Of a stretch of 64,000 bases of DNA, positions 403-24,818 are shown piece by piece. The DNA is taken from positions 434,001 through 498,000 of the forward strand of contig NW_017566996.1 of NCBI RefSeq assembly GCF_001661265.1. The letters run 5' to 3'. Under the pieces are notes generated by a model. It was not told the DNA's origin. It ran no database searches and saw only the letters and a program-made list of their open reading frames with translations. Both the position numbers and the translations under genes were made by a program. Position 1 is the first letter of the stretch. The number at the start of each line of letters is the position of its first letter. Source of the DNA: Saitoella complicata NRRL Y-17804 (Eukaryota > Ascomycota > Saitoellomycetes > Saitoellales > Saitoellaceae).

Positions 403-3400
403 ATGGATCTCCTGGCGAAAGGCCTCTCGGTACTGTCCGCGCAACCGCTGCACCAATCCGCCGACGAGGCCATCGCGAAGCTATGTGATCGCTTGCAATA
501 CTCAACCTTGCTTGAGGACCGGAGGGCTGCTGTCCTGGGACTGAAGGGGTTCTCTAGGGATTTCAAGGAGGTTCGTGTCGTGCCACAATGACAATACCCT
601 GTTTCTGACCTGGTGGCACAGCAAGTTGCAACAGGAGGTCTAGCAGGACTCTTCGTCACACTCACCCGTGACGCCGGCGACCTCGACACCCTCAAAGCCG
701 CTCTCGAGACCCTCCTCGTCCTCTTCTACCGCGACTCAAACGATCCACAATCCCCCGACCTCCAAACATGGATGGCAGACGCCTTCATCTCCGCACCCCA
801 AAACATCTCCTCCATCATCGAGATCCTCGACCAAAATGATTTCTATGTTCGATTGTTTGCACTACAACTGCTGGCCAGTTTAATGGGTGTACGAGGAAAC
901 AAGATGAAGGAGCTCATGTTTGCGGATCCGACGGCGTTGTCGAGGTTGGTTGCTACACTTGGTGATGGGCGCGAAGCGGTACGGAATGAGGGGTTGTTGC
1001 TGTTGATTGCGCTGAGTGATGCGAATACGGATATCCAGAAGCTCATTGCGTTCGAAAATGCGTTCGAGAGGTTGTTTGAGGTCGTTGAGATTGAGGGTGG
1101 GTTGGATGGGGGAATCGTGACCCAGGATTGTCTACAGTTGCTCAACAACCTGTTACATCACAATACTTCGAACCAGACGCTGTTCAGGGAGCTCGGAAGC
1201 GTTCCGAGATTAGCAAAGTTACTGGCGGACGGGAAGGCCGAGACACGATGGAATGAGCAAAAGGCAACGAACTTGTCAGCATCAATTGCTCTGACCAGAG
1301 CATTCGTCGAGCGCGGCGCTCCAGGTATCGAGGCAAATCAGAAGGTTATGGCATCCTCGGGTATCTTGGACAGCCTCGTCGAGATAGGATTCTCGGATGC
1401 ATTGCCAATAGGCGTCCGTGCTCATGCTTTGACCACCTGTGCCGACTTGATCCGTTCAAACCCTCAGAATCAGGACTTGTTTGCGCGGTCAAGAGTCGTG
1501 GGTGCCCCTCCGCCGCTTGCTCCCGGTACCTCGAGGGCTTCGACGCCCGGGATGGGCAAGACCATCAGTCCGGTCATGGAGCTGCTGTTGATTGCACTGT
1601 ACTCCGAGTCTGCAGAATTCTTCGAGCTGCGTGCCGCCGCCGTTCTCTGTTTCCAGGGTTACATCCAAGATAACGACATCGCAAAAGGCCATATCGTCGA
1701 ATACCTCATCGACATCTACTTCCGATCACAGAAGAACCAGAACACGGACGGCGAACCGGGATTGCTAGACTGCATTCTGTGGCTAGAACAGTCCAGGGCA
1801 CGGAAGGATCCGTATAAGGTATGGTTCGCCTGTGTGCTCTTGATGCACCTCCTCTTCGAAAACCCTAGGACGAAGTCATTGTTGCATGCTGTAACGATTG
1901 GTGGTGATGAGGATGTCGTTACGGCCGTGCAGACACTCGCGGCGAACCTCGTCACGTCTATCCGACATTCTCTTGATCCGCGGATTTCGCTCGCGTATGC
2001 TATGCTGCTGTGTGCGTGGCTGTGGGAGGATACACCATCCGTCATCGATTTCTTACATGAGAGTGGGAATGTGTCGAGTCTCCTGGGGACTGTGGCCGGT
2101 AGTGGTGGTGGGTCCACGGAGGTGATGGTGCAGGGGCTGTGTACGTGTTTGTTGGGTATGTGCTACGAGTTCGATGAGGGTGATTCTCCTATACCGAGGG
2201 AGAGGTTGCATTCGATGTTGGTGGACCGGGTAGGCAAGGATCAGTTTGTCAATAGGATCGCACGGTTACGGCAGTCGCCTGAGTTCCGGGATCTCACGGT
2301 GGATTTCGCGTTCTCGTCGACTGATGCGCAGGGTTTGCCGAATGTTTACTTTGATTTAACGTTTGTTGAGTTTCTGAAAGATAATTACAGCAGGATCCAA
2401 AGGTCGGTTCGTCGGGATCCGTCGGCGTTTGAGCCGGTGCCCGTGGTGAAGGGTGGTGAAGTCAACGGAGACCTTTCAAAGCAGCTTGAGGCGTTGAGGA
2501 TTCAGTTGCAGGAGAAGGACAGGGAGGTTGAGCGAGCGCGGGAGAATTTGCGTGGTGAGCATCAGTCGAAGCAGGACGAGCTTGCCAAGAATAACCATGA
2601 CTTGCGCGCTCAGCTCGAGGCGGCCAAAGCTGAGGCAGCAAAAGCCCAGGATGAAGTAGCAGCAGCAAAGAAGAAGCTTGAGCAGGAGGCGGAGTCTACG
2701 GCCGGTAAAGCTGGCGAGGCACTGGAGCAGAAGGAGGCACAGTGGACTGAAGAGCGTGAGAAGCTTCGGAAGCAGTTGGACGACTTGAGACATGAACTGC
2801 AGGCGGCGTTAAAGGAGAACAGGCAGACTGCATCGCAGCTTCAACAGAGTCTGGAGGATCTCGACAATATCAATGACATGACTTCGAAGAAGTTGAAGGC
2901 TAAAGATGAGGCTCTTGAGGCTGCGAAGAAACAGGTTGATGAGCTCAAGGCAAAGGATGCTGAGTTGAAGAAGGTCCAGGAGGAAATTAATGATCTTCGG
3001 AAGAAACTCAATGACTCCAAGAGTTCGGCTGGGGTCAATGACAAGGAGGTGAAGCGTTTGCAGAAGGAGAAAGATGACATCCAAGAACAACTTGACAAGG
3101 TTCAGTCATCGGTGTCTAGCAAAGACGCGGATCTCGAGAAGGCGAAGAAGGAGACGGTTGAGATTCAAAAGAAGTTGGATGAGTCGAAGAAGGCTTCTGA
3201 TAAGGCGGCAAAGGAGAAGGCTGATCTGGAGAAGAAGGGCGAGGAGGCTAAGAAGGCTTTGGAGTCTGCGAAGGCAAATGTCAAGCGCCTTGAGGGCGAG
3301 AAAGCTGACTTGCAGAAGAAGCTTGATGAAGCACAGGCCTCATCCGAGGCCTTGGATACACTGAAGAAGAAGTACGCGGACTCACTGAAGCAGGTTATGG

Positions 3401-3594
3401 AAGCCAAGGGCTTGAAAGACAAGGTCAAGGCCGCAGAAGAGAAGGCTGCAGAGGTACAGAGTGAGATGGATGACTTGTTGCTCGTACTCGGAGAATTGGA
3501 AGATAAGAGGGCAAAGGACAAGGAGAGACTGAAGGCTCTTGGCGAGGAAGTCTCTGAAGCAGAGGACGACGAGGAAGACGATGATGAGGAGTAG
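403..3594 (+). CDS. USO1: General vesicular transport factor p115/Uso1
   Basis: Long coiled-coil tether that captures COPII vesicles at the Golgi, working with Rab1/Ypt1 and SNAREs. Exons 403-570 and 622-3594 (intron 51 nt) give 1046 residues. The N-terminus has the family signature around residues 23-50 (KLCDRLQ, then LLEDRRAAVLGLKG). An armadillo-like helical head runs to about residue 600. From about 635 to 1015 there is a Lys/Glu-rich coiled coil, and the protein ends in an Asp/Glu tail, as in yeast Uso1 and animal p115. The start ATG is placed where the family begins (MDLL). The exon join gives FKE-QVATGGL without a frame break. Shorter than S. cerevisiae Uso1 (about 1790), in line with other filamentous fungi. 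VMA6 follows on the same strand. Confidence 0.95.
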
Positions 3595-6438: not shown

Positions 6439-9223
6439 ATGGACAGATTATCCTCATCCCGAAAGGCGGAGAGGCGCCGTCATTCGTCGCCTTATGCTAG
6501 GCCTGCAGAGACACCGCGTAGACAGCGTCGTTCGACATCGCCAGAGGTGGGTTTCATCAATTGATTTCTTGGAATGAAGTGCTAATGTATCTGGTAGACT
6601 CCGAAGAGTAGTATTATTCAACGCGCTAGGTCGTTCTTGAGCCCGCTTTTCCGTGGGACGCCGTCGAAGCACGAGGATAACGACGAGGAAGAGGATGATG
6701 AGGGTGAGACCGAGGGATCTGGGTCTGAGATGGAGGAAGACCAGGATGAGGAAGGCTCCGGTCAAGAAGAGAGTGGTAGTGTCGGCGACAGAATCGGGCG
6801 TGGCGGCCTTCTCAAGAGGCTTAGCCTCAGGAGACTCCCCGAAATTCCTCCTCTTCGCCGCCGGCGCAACAACCTCCTCCAACCCCCTCTTCCCTTCATC
6901 CTCCTTCACCGGCGTTCCCGGCTCTGCAATCGCAGAAGTGAGCTCATACTTATCCTTCTTCTCCACCGCCGCAACAGGCGAACGCGACGGCGAAGATCTG
7001 GACCCCGTGACCGTAGTCGCCAAAGGCTGACGACCCCTATACGGCGAAGCCACAGTCGGACCATAGTAATTCGGCCTCCGCACCGACGAAACTCTCGACG
7101 CGCTCGCTGTCGTCCCCGAGGTAGAAGGCGCAAATGTCCGTTCCGGTGTAAACAACGGGTAATAGGCCGGCGATCCCATCGGCGGAACCGAGCTGGTCCT
7201 AACTGGCGTCCCCACAAACCCAGGAACCGGATCCACAGCATTCTTCTGCATTAAACTCATCACACCCTCAATTTCGACAGCGGACATGGGCTTATCACCA
7301 CGGCTCGCGAAAAAGTCGGCAAGGATTTGGTTAGGGGAGTCGGAAGGAGCAGCAGCTGCAGAGCCGCGGGATGGGGTGGAGGGGTGGGAGGGGGCTTCGG
7401 AGGGGGGGCGGAATGTGAAGGTGGAGGAGGCGGGGCGGGGGTGCGATTGGGAGATTGGGAGGGTAGGGTAGAGGTTTGCTGAGCCGTTGGCGGAGGCGTC
7501 TTCCTCCTCGTCGCCCTCCCTCCAAAGAAGCCGAGAAGCCAGACCGCCTCGGCTCTCCTCGACATCTTAGGCGAGGCAGAGTCCCGTGAGCCGGCGTCGA
7601 ATGATACGTATGTCCCCCCTACTGATCTATCGGTTTTCTTGAACCCGTACGCGAAGGAGGGCGGTGCCACGCCCAAGAAGACAGAGAGAAAGAGGGCGGA
7701 GGAGGCGGCGAAGTCTCACACTCCGAAAAAGGCGGAGAGAAGCGCAATTGAGGTTATTGAGCGGACGGCACCTAAGCCCGCTGAGACGGAGCAGAAGAAG
7801 GAGAAGTCAGCATCGCCTGCGCCGCCCAATTTGCATTCGTTTACGCCGAGCAAGACGACGGGAACGCCAGTAGGGACTCCGTCGAAGTTTGAGTACAACA
7901 AGTACAAGCCTGTGCGGAGCTCGAAATTGAGTCAGGGCTTCTCGGTGCCCAGTCCGGATCCGGTTGAGAAGGTTGACAATAACAAGGAGGAGGAGAAGAC
8001 GGAGGAGGTGAAGGAGAAGCCCGCGACTCCTGTGATTAGTTTCGATGCGAGTGCGGCGAAGCCTGCGGCGGCGTTCTCGTTTGGTGCACCTGCTGCTGTT
8101 GCGAAGAAGGAGGAAGAAAAGAAGGAGGAGCCTGCGCCGATTGCTGGCTTCTCGTTTGGTGCGCCGAAGACTGCCGTGCCTCCCCCTGCTCCTTCATTCT
8201 CGTTTGGGGTGCCGGCTGCAAAGCCTGCTAAAGAGGAGGAGGCAGCCCTGGTTACTACTGCTACTTCTTCGGGATTCAGCTTCAAGCAGCCTACTACTGT
8301 CTCGGACGAGTTAAACTCATCCGTTGACACCAGTGCCAGTTTGTTCGCGTTCAAGCCTTCGAGCGATGAGAGTGCCAAGACCTCTGCTACCGTGTCTTCT
8401 GCCACTATCTCTTCTTTGGTCTTCTCCAAGACTGCTGAGAAGGATGTGAAGGAGTTGGCTGCGGACACGGATGTTAAGGGTCTTTCTTCGTACAGCTTTA
8501 CGGTGTTGCCGGTTGCTGATACCACGTCTGCTGCAGCGAAGAAGGCGTTGGTTATCCCGGTGAGTGAGTTGCAAGTGTACGACTTTACCAAGAAGGCAGA
8601 GGTTATCCAGACGCAGACGCATCAGGCTACGCTTAGTTTTGATTGGGCTGCTGCTGGGATGAAGATGCCGCAGAAGGCTGTGGATGAGTGGGGTTGTGAT
8701 GTCTGTCTGGTCACCAACAAAGCCACCGCTGACAAGTGTATTTCGTGCGAGACGCCGAAGCCAGCGCAGAAGACAGCGGCGAACACGCATGTTTCGACAC
8801 CGAGTTTTGATTGGGCTGCTGCTGGGATGAAGATGCCGCAGAAGGCTGTGGATGAGTGGGGTTGTGATGTCTGTCTAGTCACCNNNNNNNNNNNNNNNNN
8901 NNNACACGCATGTTTCGACACCGAGTTTTGATTGGGCTGCTGCTGGGATGAAGATGCCGCAGAAGGCTGTGGATGAGTGGGGTTGTGATGTCTGTCTAGT
9001 CACCAACAAAGCCACCGCTGACAAGTGTATTTCGTGCGAGACGCCGAAGCCAGCGCAGAAGACAGCGGCGAACACGCATGTTTCGACACCGAGTTTTGAT
9101 TGGACGGCTGCTGGGATGAAGCTTCCGCAGAGGGCGGCTGATGAGTGGGAGTGTGGGGCTTGTATGGTTACGAATAAGGGGGATGCTGGGCGGTGTATTG
9201 CTTGTGAGAATCCTAAGTCCTAA
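6439..9223 (+). CDS. FG-repeat, RanBP2-zinc-finger nucleoporin (Nup153-like), interrupted by an internal inversion
   Basis: Nuclear-basket type nucleoporin. Exon 1 is 6439-6546, the intron 6547-6597, and exon 2 starts at 6598. Plus-strand coding covers the basic N-terminus (TPRRQRRS, then IIQRARSFLSPLFRGTPSK) and an acidic stretch up to about 6789. From 7516 it resumes with PPKKPRSQTASALLD, NPYAKEGG, FSFGAP repeats (residues rich in FG) and at least four zinc fingers of the form W-x-C-x2-C-x10-C-x2-C, ending at 9223. Between them, 6784-7515 is coding only on the minus strand and carries the conserved GDKPMSAVEIEGVMSLM region. As written the gene is disrupted. A 20-N gap in the zinc-finger array also breaks frame. 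With the segment re-oriented and the gap at 67 nt, the protein would be about 926 residues. Identification as a nucleoporin is firm; the orthologue name is not. Confidence 0.85.
6784..7515. other. Inverted segment inside the nucleoporin gene
   Basis: Bounded by GGCGAC at 6784-6789 and its reverse complement GTCGCC at 7510-7515. The reverse complement of the interior is open throughout and continues the flanking frames exactly: SGSVGD then EEEDASANGS on the left, EKAATPDSVA then LPPKKPRSQT on the right. Both hexamers lie in codon phase and the segment is 732 nt, a multiple of three. Read on the plus strand the segment gives Arg-rich nonsense with stops. Confidence 0.8.
8635..9220 (+). repeat. 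Tandem 168-bp zinc-finger repeat
   Basis: Copies start at 8635, 8803, 8924 (after the gap) and 9092. The unit is 168 bp (56 codons) and encodes SFDWAAAGMK, PQKAVDEW, a C-x2-C-x10-C-x2-C finger and a linker. Copies 1-3 are nearly identical at DNA level, which points to recent duplication or homogenisation. The last copy is diverged (WECGAC, RCIAC). Confidence 0.9.
8884..8903. other. Assembly gap (20 N) within the zinc-finger repeat
   Basis: Twenty Ns replace sequence between GTCACC and ACACGCATG. In the intact copies these two anchors are 67 nt apart, so the true gap is at least 67 nt, or 67 plus multiples of 168. The nominal 20 nt shifts the reading frame. Confidence 0.95.
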
Positions 9224-9654
9224 GATGGAGGGGGAAAATCTGATGTGGGGAGTTGGTGTGGTGGGTGCGGTTGTGCAGTGTCTGACGAGTATTCTACAGC
9301 ATAGCCTGTCGTGAGGGGTCTTTTGGTGATATGAAGGATTTTATGATAATAAAATATGGTAATCAAAACATTCTCTCGGTGTAAGCTATCCCATAAGTGT
9401 TCACGTCTCCATTTGTAATTGACCGGGCTACAGTACTGACGACCGCGCACGTCTGCGAACGAAAGCAGCCGGCAGTCTACGTCAACTGCACCATAAAGCT
9501 CGATAACGCCAGCAATTGATCGCAGGACATCTCGATCGACTTCTCCGTATTACGTCGTTGTACATGGTTCAGCAGCTGCACTACGGAAAATTAGTTTAAG
9601 GGCATCGAACAACCCGCATCGACAAACTCAACACCAGACGACAACACATACAAA
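9224..9654. other. Intergenic, nucleoporin 3' end to RSM7 promoter
   Basis: No coding frame or RNA gene recognised. It contains an A/T-rich stretch near 9340-9360 likely to lie in the nucleoporin 3' UTR, and the RSM7 leader just before 9655. Confidence 0.5.
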
Positions 9655-10463
9655 ATGTTCGCAGCAAGAAGAGCACTCTACACCGTCTCGGCACGCCCCG
9701 TTCTCCATGTGGCTCCCCGTATCGCCGTCGCGACCAGATCATATGCCGATAAGCAGGGTGCGCCGACCAAGTCCCACCCCGATGCCACCATGCCCCACAT
9801 CACCGAGGAGACCAAGGCATACGAGAGGATTTATGAGAAGGGAAAGCCTACCACCGACCAATCACCAGTGGAGGATGAGGGCGTGACTGCACAGGAGCTG
9901 ATCGAGGGTGACGCCGAGGCCGAGAAGAACGCACCAGAGGTTGTGAAGGAGAACTTGAACAAGTTCGCCGTACCAGAACCTTTGGAAAAGGGAAAGTACG
10001 ATGATATTGTCCAGTTATTCGTAGGTGTCATCATGAAGGACGGAAAGAAGGCTCGTGCGCAGAACGTTTTGCAGAAGGCATTTGATGTCCTTAAGCTGAA
10101 GACAGGCGGAAACCCTTTGCAGGCTTTCGCGGAGGCTATGGAGAGGGCTGCACCGTTGATGTCAATCCGTACCAGTGTCAAGGGAACCAAGAAGGTTCAG
10201 GTGCCTGTACCATTGAACGAGAGACAGAGGCACAGGCATGGAATCAGGTGGATCATCAAGCAGTATGTTGCACATGATTCTCGGCAAATGGATGAGCTAA
10301 CAATTTTTGCAGCTCCGAGTCACGAAAGCACAAAGAACTCCACTTGAGGATTGCGGATGAGTTGCTTGCTGTCTTGGATGGAACCAGCAACGTGTTCAAC
10401 GACAAATTCGAAGTTCACAGGCAGTGCTTGCTTAACCGTGCCAGTGCTTCTGTCCGTGGTTAA
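9655..10463 (+). CDS. RSM7: Mitochondrial small-subunit ribosomal protein uS7m
   Basis: uS7 of the mitochondrial ribosome, a primary 16S-like rRNA binder in the head of the small subunit. Exons 9655-10262 and 10313-10463 (intron 50 nt, branch gagctaac) give 252 residues. The first 30 residues are basic and lack acids up to the Asp in SYADK, a typical mitochondrial presequence. The S7 core starts near residue 120 (YDDIVQLFVGVIMKDGKKARAQ), followed by NPLQAFAEAMERAAPLM and the PLNERQRHRHGIRWI block. The second exon supplies the ESRKHKELHLRIADELL helix. Confidence 0.95.
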
Positions 10464-10660
10464 GTGTACAACTATACCAGCCTACTTGAAGGCATTATTT
10501 AGCATAGCAAAGAACTATTTGGATAATTCTCGTGTTCGTCCCTGTTTGAAACCCTGCGTCATAATCTGCACGGTTAAGTCCCCACGTAAACCCGGCACTT
10601 GCAATTGAGCACAGCGCATAAACAGTCAACATTTGAAGGGCAACCAGTTCCAACACCCTG

Positions 10661-22980: not shown

Positions 22981-24818
22981 ATGGGTGGACTTCTGTACGT
23001 CTCCTTCGCTCCGTTTATCGTTGGATCAGGCTGACCTCTCTTGCAGTATTCTCGCTGAAACCAGTGCCGGTGTTGCCGTCTTCAAGGTTAGTCCCATTGC
23101 TCGGCAAATGGAAAGGACGAATGAATCACAGTCCTTTCTGAATTTGCGCAAGCAAACGCAAATAGAATGATGAGATGTTGACTGTGTCGTTTTTCTATTT
23201 GTAGGCAAAGGACAAGATCCTCAAGAAGCCCGAGAACCTTGCCGAGGAGTTCCAGACCGCTGAGGGTGCTGCCAACTTGTATGTTGTCATTGTCGCTGGA
23301 GTCATATACAGATGTTAATTGTTGCGCAGGTTGAAGCTCCAGGCTTTCTCCAAGTTCGAGTCTACTGCCGATGCTCTCGACACCGTCAACGCCTTGATCG
23401 AGGGTAAGGTCTCCTCCAAGCTCCAGAACATCCTCGAGGACATCTCCGACAAGAAGTCTTCCCTCGTTGTCGCCGACCCCAAACTCGGTAACGCCATCAA
23501 CAAGATCGCCGGCCTCGACTTCAAGATCATCTCCGACTCCACCGTCGCCCCTCTCTACCGTGGTATCCGCGAGCACCTTTCTTCCCTCATTACCGGTCTT
23601 ACCCCCGATGACTTGAAGATCATGTCCCTCGGTCTCTCCCACTCTCTTTCCCGTCACAAGCTTAAGTTCTCTACCGACAAGGTCGACACTATGATCGTCC
23701 AGGCTATCGCTTTGTTGGATGATCTCGACAAGGAGCTCAACACCTACGCTATGCGTGTCAAGGAGTGGTACGGATGGCATTTCCCCGAGATGGGCAAGAT
23801 CTTGTCCGACAACCTCGCCTACGCTCGTGTCGTCAAGACCATGGGTTTCCGCACCAACGCCTCTACCACCGACCTTTCCACCGTCCTTCCCGAAGAGCTC
23901 GAGGAGGCTGTCAAGCAGGCCGCTGAGATCTCCATGGGTACCGAGATCACCGACGACGATTTGGAGAACATCAACCTCCTCGTCGACCAAGTCCTTTCTC
24001 TCTCCGCCTACCGTGCGCAGTTGTCCGACTACCTCCGTAACCGTATGCAGGCCATCGCTCCCAACCTTACCGCCCTTGTCGGAGAGTTGGTTGGTGCACG
24101 GTTGATCGCCCACGCTGGTTCCCTCATCAACCTCGCCAAGCAGCCCGCTTCCACTATCCAGATTTTGGGTGCCGAGAAGGCCTTGTTCCGTGCTTTGAAG
24201 ACCAAGCACGACACACCCAAGTACGGTCTCATCTACCACGCCTCCCTCATCGGACAGGCTGGTGTCAAGTCCAAGGGTAAGATCGCGCGTATGCTCGCTA
24301 CCAAGGCCGCTCTCTCCCTCCGTGTTGACGCGCTTGGCGACGAGAAGAACGACACTGGCGCCCTTGGTTTGGAGTCGAGATTGAAGGTCGAGAACCGCCT
24401 GAGACAATTGGAGGGTGGTAAGCCCATCTCCTCCGGAAACGCGAACCAGACCCCCGTCGGAACGCAATCGACGAAGAAGTTTGAGTTGAACGGTGCTTCT
24501 GGGTACAATGCTGACGCCGATATGGCCGACGCACCTGTGGTCAAGTCTGCTGCTGACAAGGTTGGCTCTAAGCGTTCAAGACAGGATGAATCTGATGCTG
24601 AGGATGAGGTTATGGCTGAGGTTGAGGAGTCTGGTGCTGTTGAGTCTAAGAAGGAGAAGAAGGACAAGAAGGAGAAGAAGGATAAGTCTTCCAAGAAGCG
24701 CAAGTTGGAGTCTGAGGAGGCGGAGGAGGAGCCCAAGTCCAAGAAGGACAAGAAGGACAAGAAGGAGAAGAAAGAGAAGAAGGAGAAGAAAGAGAAGAAG
24801 TCCAAGAACAAGGATTAA
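22981..24818 (+). CDS. NOP58: Box C/D snoRNP core protein Nop58
   Basis: Nucleolar core protein of box C/D snoRNPs that guide rRNA 2'-O-methylation and 18S processing. Exons 22981-22994, 23047-23086, 23205-23278 and 23330-24818 (introns 52, 118 and 51 nt) give 538 residues. The tiny first exon encodes MGGLL and joins to [20 protein letters not shown]. The NOSIC and Nop domains follow ([63 protein letters not shown]). The C-terminus is a long [11 protein letters not shown] tail, typical of Nop58 rather than Nop56. The splice joins are supported by continuous family similarity. Confidence 0.95.

What the first reader, a model, noticed from the sequence alone, without database searches (positions are those of the whole stretch)
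6784..7515. A 732-bp inversion inside a nucleoporin gene, bounded by a 6-bp inverted repeat
Plus-strand coding stops making sense at 6789 and resumes at 7516. Between these points only the minus strand carries conserved nucleoporin sequence. The edges are GGCGAC (6784-6789) and GTCGCC (7510-7515), both in codon phase, and turning the segment round gives one open frame across both joins with sensible protein on each side. That exact fit argues that the uninverted form existed recently. Six bases are too short to mislead a normal assembler, so a real rearrangement, a polymorphism or a chimeric clone should be considered as well as misassembly. If real, this strain lacks an intact copy of the protein at this locus, or the segment switches.
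Basis: partly seen in the sequence, partly recalled or inferred. Interest (0 to 1): 0.75.

Follow-up and report, generated by a model that had tools for sequence, protein, structure and literature searches.

The report
Assembly-specific inversion inside a nucleoporin gene
In one of two public genome assemblies of the same yeast strain, about 750 bases inside a nuclear-pore gene run backwards, while the other assembly and a sister species have them the normal way round; it is most likely an assembly error or a recent accident in one culture, not a switch.

Summary
The window is Saitoella complicata NRRL Y-17804. A protein from another assembly of the same named strain (P0001) and one from S. 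coloradoensis (P0002) have the normal order. Of 45,000 breakpoint pairs tested, one inversion (two equivalent coordinate pairs, 6772-7518 or 6771-7519) yields P0001, 717 of 717 residues compared. It is lossless, with at most 1 bp of junction homology. GGCGAC/GTCGCC lies inside the segment, 12 and 3 bp from its ends; such a pair arises in 24% of simulations. No repeat marks the true edges, so nothing supports a switch. The gene has another flaw 1.4 kb downstream: 20 Ns flanked by 101 identical bases. I judge an assembly-specific error most likely (0.6), a real inversion in the sequenced subculture second (0.33). Reads decide; none were available. A deposited protein (P0003) carries about 63 wrong-strand residues because of it.

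The parts
6439..6546 (+). Exon 1 of the nucleoporin gene (starts MDRLSSSRKAERRR)
   Evidence: Reading frame, splice sites and identity to P0001
6547..6597 (+). 51-bp GT-AG intron
   Evidence: Splice sites located; the spliced, turned protein equals P0001
6598..6771 (+). Exon 2 left part, acidic; last residues in normal order ...GSGQEE
   Evidence: Matches P0001 up to the left breakpoint
6772..7518 (-). Inverted 747-bp segment (6771-7519 is equivalent); encodes 249 nucleoporin residues on the minus strand
   Evidence: The only inversion among 45,000 pairs that yields P0001; 249/249 residues vs P0001, 227/249 vs P0002
6784..6789 (+).
7510..7515 (+).
6938..7495 (+). Apparent 558-bp false intron that the deposited model P0003 uses to skip the stops (limits inferred by me from P0003)
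   Evidence: P0003 residues map to 6919-6939 and 7498-7530; GT/AG ends printed
7519..8883 (+). Rest of the coding region up to the Ns: FxFG motifs, first RanBP2-type zinc finger, second one cut by the Ns
   Evidence: PF00641 E=4.3e-8, one stretch, in the plus-strand reading of 7516-8883; order as in P0001/P0002
8884..8903 (.). 20 Ns; the 101 bp before them (8783-8883) equal the 101 bp after (8904-9004): read here as an unmerged contig overlap
8904..9223 (+). 3' end of the gene with the last zinc fingers and the stop
   Evidence: Open frame; matches the end of P0003

Best explanation
The inversion belongs to this one assembly, not to the species. A stretch of about 750 bp inside an ordinary nucleoporin gene was written into the consensus in the wrong orientation, for example when a gap-closing or local re-assembly step pasted in a patch back to front. 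The gene itself makes an FG- and zinc-finger-containing nucleoporin that works like the nuclear-basket proteins Nup153, Nup124 and Nup1. Shown: two records under one strain name disagree, and the sister species agrees with the uninverted one. Inferred: that the wrong one is this assembly, and how the error arose.
For: P0001 (G7K_4717-t1, recorded as S. complicata NRRL Y-17804, on a contig of 174,615 bases) is identical to the turned gene at 717 of 717 residues compared, and P0003 (SAICODRAFT_69974, same strain name, on a contig of 590,873 bases) carries this window's arrangement. S. coloradoensis P0002 has the normal order. P0001 most likely comes from the 104-contig assembly of paired-end and 3-15 kb mate-pair reads with RNA-seq-guided gene calls (PMC4447899, whole text read); that link is my inference, since no call ties the G7K prefix to it. 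There is no amino-acid divergence in the segment. The same gene has a second apparent assembly flaw 1.4 kb away: 20 Ns with 101 identical bases on either side. The deposited model appears to need a 558-bp intron to skip the stops.
Against: The junctions are base-exact and lossless, with no Ns, no duplication and at most 1 bp of homology. Long inverted repeats, the usual assembler cause of inversions (recalled), are absent, and a wrongly placed contig would normally leave a gap or a duplication. I found no second example: my scans for other inversions covered the window only and were too insensitive to count, and more of the genome could not be fetched. How this assembly was made was not seen in the listings searched; apart from PMC4447899 those papers were not read for it.
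Confidence: 0.6

Rival explanations
1. A real, recent, balanced inversion arose by two breaks and blunt or 1-bp end joining in the subculture sequenced for this assembly. It truncates the nucleoporin after 94 normal residues; 160 wrong-strand residues follow before a stop. The stock behind the other record kept the intact gene.
For: Lossless junctions with 0-1 bp homology look like end joining of a real molecule rather than a graph error. Zero protein divergence fits a very recent event. The zinc-finger repeat number also differs between the two records.
Against: Spontaneous small inversions becoming fixed within one strain's stocks are rare (recalled, not tested). It would break a gene conserved with the sister species. 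A neighbouring apparent assembly flaw makes this stretch suspect.
Confidence: 0.33
2. The segment is a reversible switch, or both orientations coexist in a culture.
For: Both orientations are on record for one strain name.
Against: The true edges have no inverted repeat: aligned flanks agree at 6 of 20, 9 of 40 and 14 of 60 positions. The longest inverted repeat within 150 bp is 10 bp, 40 and 11 bp off the breaks, and 13 of 100 shuffles do as well.
Confidence: 0.03
3. The inverted form is the true one and the record behind P0001 is wrong.
For: None beyond the exact junctions.
Against: The sister species has the P0001 order, the turned gene is one open frame, and the deposited inverted model appears to need a false intron.
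Confidence: 0.03

Closest known systems
Local inversion misassemblies in short-read genome assemblies
   Same: One record differs from another of the same named strain by orientation only; a flawed N stretch lies close by
   Different: No inverted repeat at the edges and no Ns or duplication at the joins, which such errors usually show (recalled)
Nup153 / Nup124 / Nup1-type FG nucleoporins of the nuclear basket
   Same: FxFG motifs and RanBP2-type zinc fingers; the sister protein P0002 matches Nup153 and RanBP2 structures over its zinc fingers. From memory, the N-terminal SSIIQRARSFLSPLFRG resembles the membrane-binding helix of such proteins; not tested
   Different: The Pfam Nup153 domain PF08604 was not listed for P0001, P0002 or P0003; animal Nup153 hits cover 10-18% of the query, one row 32%. 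That this is the zinc fingers is inferred from the Pfam column
Invertible DNA switches (invertons)
   Same: A segment found in both orientations under one strain name
   Different: No terminal inverted repeats, and the segment is an internal piece of one coding exon

Membership tests
Assembly-specific misorientation | Another assembly of the same named strain has the other orientation | tested here: met
   P0001 vs P0003, on contigs of different length
Assembly-specific misorientation | Closest relative has the other orientation | tested here: met
   P0002 S. coloradoensis
Assembly-specific misorientation | Own raw reads contradict the printed junctions | not testable with these tools
   No reads held
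Assembly-specific misorientation | Long inverted repeat, gap or duplication at the joins (usual for such errors, not required) | tested here: not met
   Lossless joins, at most 1 bp homology, no Ns
Real balanced inversion by end joining | Balanced, short or no homology at breakpoints | tested here: met
Real balanced inversion by end joining | Present in DNA of the sequenced stock | not testable with these tools
   Needs PCR or reads
Invertible DNA switch | Inverted repeats at the ends of the segment | tested here: not met
Invertible DNA switch | Both orientations in one clone | not testable with these tools
   Needs reads
Nup153 family (Pfam PF08604) | PF08604 match | tested here: not met
   Not listed at E<=1 for P0001, P0002, P0003
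RanBP2-zinc-finger FG nucleoporin | PF00641 zinc fingers plus FxFG motifs | tested here: met
   PF00641 E=4.3e-8 in window 7516-8883 and 7.3e-14 in P0002; FSFG motifs read directly

The most novel reading that the evidence does not exclude
The inversion is physically real in one stock of S. complicata: a nuclear-basket-type nucleoporin was lost within a single type strain by a lossless, nearly homology-free inversion. A reversible form of this is not excluded but has no support.
Probability: 0.33. Interest if true: 0.35.

Novelty: not a real feature. Interest (0 to 1): 0.12.

Why it matters
If it is an artefact, a deposited genome and its protein (P0003, SAICODRAFT_69974) need correction, because the protein contains wrong-strand residues and lacks 249 conserved ones. 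If it is real, it would be a clean natural loss-of-function allele of a basket-type nucleoporin in an early-branching ascomycete and an example of stock divergence within a type strain. Either way, the case shows that a short inverted repeat seen near a break in coding sense should not be taken as the breakpoint without an independent sequence.

Tried and rejected
Rejected: the GGCGAC/GTCGCC repeat as breakpoints (fixes the edges elsewhere; chance 0.24). Rejected: a 10-bp in-phase inverted repeat GGAGGAAGAC at 6732-6741/7498-7507 (seen as overlapping 8-mers, as 10 bp) as the site; it lies 40 and 11 bp off the true edges, and 13 of 100 shuffles reach 10 bp.

Tried without result: codon-usage scans of the window for further inversions. 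The first form listed two hits, the focal inversion (edges off, 6781-7566) and 23664-23849. I judge the second a false positive from its translations without a test. That form detected only 10 of 163 simulated inversions. A Viterbi form listed nothing, so it missed the focal inversion, and it found 23 of 108 simulated ones. Neither says how common such inversions are. Papers: none holds both 'Saitoella complicata' and 'AllPaths'; 8 papers held three of four terms on the genome project, none of them 'AllPaths' (listing only); 'Saitoella complicata' with 'nucleoporin' gave 0 papers; 11 papers held two of 'Saitoella', 'inversion', 'NRRL Y-17804' (8 listed, listing only). Searches were likewise seen as listings; of the papers in them I opened PMC4447899, PMC5741268 and PMC7912804. 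Pfam finds no domain in the minus-strand reading of 6784-7515, so the segment's identity rests on the orthologues. A profile search gave no further close orthologue beyond the Saitoella proteins; P0011 and P0013, which were in its alignment, are not in its list.

Full report
Identity of the window. The window lies in a 14,122,262-base, 34-contig genome, contig C5. A search with the gene read in its turned form returned three near-identical proteins: P0001 (G7K_4717-t1, Saitoella complicata NRRL Y-17804), P0003 (SAICODRAFT_69974, same strain name) and P0002 (YB2330_004373, S. coloradoensis). P0003 contains the window's own wrong-strand residues (SGSVGDRIGRGG...), so I take the window to be the assembly behind P0003. 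From memory, the SAICODRAFT prefix is that of the Joint Genome Institute; no call shows this. P0001 and P0003 lie on contigs of 174,615 and 590,873 bases, so they come from different assemblies. P0001 most likely belongs to the 104-contig assembly made with SPAdes from paired-end and 3-15 kb mate-pair reads, with RNA-seq-guided gene calls (PMC4447899, whole text read). That link is inferred, and the paper does not print the strain number; the protein record does. Saitoella is described as believed saprophytic (PMC7912804, passages).

What is there. Exon 1 (6439-6546), a 51-bp intron and the start of exon 2 read normally on the plus strand. Inside exon 2 the plus strand fails, with two stops, and the minus strand is open. 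Turned round, the gene is one open frame to the Ns. I tested 45,000 pairs of edges (6600-6899 by 7450-7599) against P0001. Only 6772-7518 and 6771-7519, which give the same sequence, match throughout: 717 of 717 residues compared, and still identical when the comparison was extended to window 8700. Every other pair matches for at most the first 96 residues. The minus-strand reading of the segment is identical to P0001 at 249 of 249 residues and to P0002 at 227 of 249. Its local alignment scores are 1277 and 1183, against at most 62 for any plus frame. Against the distant P0013 (Lipomyces) and P0011 (Cantharellus) it scores 188 and 90, versus at most 85 and 57. P0013 on its own is a weak hit (E=0.063). 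For P0003 a plus frame scores 300 and the minus strand 62, as expected for a protein that carries the wrong-strand reading.

The edges. The joins are lossless: no base is lost, gained or repeated, and the ambiguity is 1 bp. A pair of 6-mers like it, in the right phase, between zones 6760-6810 and 7483-7566 turns up in 24% of 2000 simulated sequences of this composition. At the true edges the flanks agree at 6 of 20, 9 of 40 and 14 of 60 aligned positions. The longest inverted repeat within 150 bp of both edges is 10 bp, offset by 40 and 11 bp; 13 of 100 shuffles do as well. Nothing at the edges resembles a recombination site.

Consequences in this assembly. Read as printed, the frame gives 94 normal residues, 160 wrong-strand ones and a stop at 7252-7254 (my count). 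The deposited model P0003 instead joins 6939 to 7498, skipping the stops with what I infer to be a 558-bp intron at 6938-7495. By the coordinates, that protein has 63 wrong-strand residues and lacks the 249 true ones. The 732-bp query (window 6784-7515) found one match in the genome, the window's own. A search of the genome for other copies of the protein did not complete, so an intact copy elsewhere is not excluded at the protein level.

A second flaw in the same gene. At 8884-8903 stand 20 Ns, the only Ns in the window. The 101 bases before them equal the 101 after, so I read them as two overlapping contigs left unmerged; the tools note that withheld stretches also read N. With the overlap counted once, two 168-bp zinc-finger units differ at one base. 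This assembly then has three fingers. P0002 has two, and P0001 has two by eye, the second cut short by its gene model so that Pfam lists only one. I cannot tell whether the other assembly collapsed a repeat or this one gained one.

What the gene is. It has FSFG motifs and RanBP2-type zinc fingers (PF00641); the sister protein P0002 matches solved structures of RanBP2/Nup358 and Nup153 over its fingers. Pfam's Nup153 domain was not listed, so I do not file it in that family. It works like the nuclear-basket FG nucleoporins Nup153, S. pombe Nup124 and yeast Nup1. The orthology of those three is the subject of a title I saw in the reference list of PMC5741268 (passages); I did not read that paper. 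The inverted part holds the stretch SPNQILADFFASRGDKPMSAVEIEGVMSLMQ, similar to SPNQMLAKFFREKGDAPLSSIEVQGVMALMQ in the Lipomyces protein.

Artefact or real? Two records under one strain name disagree, and the sister species sides with the uninverted one. That fits an error in this assembly or a recent event in its stock. For an error: errors are commoner than fixed small inversions within a strain (recalled), and there is a flawed stretch 1.4 kb away. For a real event: the joins are exact, with no repeat, gap or duplication, and an ordinary assembler confusion does not easily give that. A replaced patch put in backwards would give it, but this is conjecture. I put error at 0.6 and real inversion at 0.33. 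My attempts to see whether this assembly has more such inversions failed: the codon-based detectors, run on the window only, recovered 10 of 163 and 23 of 108 simulated inversions, the second missing the focal one, and 12 requests for more of the genome did not complete.

Verdict. It is most likely an assembly-specific inversion, possibly a stock-specific one, and I found no evidence for a switch. No paper in the library holds both 'Saitoella complicata' and 'nucleoporin'.

Noticed in passing
window 8783-9004: The 20 Ns at 8884-8903 are flanked by 101 identical bases on each side: apparently an unmerged contig overlap inside a 168-bp tandem zinc-finger repeat.
   Followed up: yes
window 8636-9223: Zinc-finger copy number differs: three in this assembly after counting the overlap once, two in S. 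coloradoensis P0002, and two by eye in P0001, the second cut short by its gene model.
   Followed up: partly
window 6439-10480 (P0001): The model G7K_4717-t1 runs past the nucleoporin's end into the next gene, a ribosomal protein S7 (PF00177); probably a gene-calling error.
   Followed up: partly
window 7516-9223: An ascomycete nucleoporin with RanBP2-type zinc fingers: the other hits with PF00641 were animals, Cantharellus, Schizophyllum, Rhizophlyctis and one unnamed protein (P0017), while the Lipomyces hit has no Pfam match. Only about 8,000 candidates sharing most words were scored per search, so absence elsewhere is not shown.
   Followed up: no
window 592-3594: Open frame of 1000 aa matching the Uso1/p115 vesicle tether head (PF04869, E=3.8e-94) and C-terminal region.
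   Followed up: no
window 23664-23849: Weak inversion candidate of the codon scan; judged a false positive from its translations, not tested. From memory the plus-strand protein looks like Nop56/Nop58, lying opposite a long antisense open frame.
   Followed up: partly
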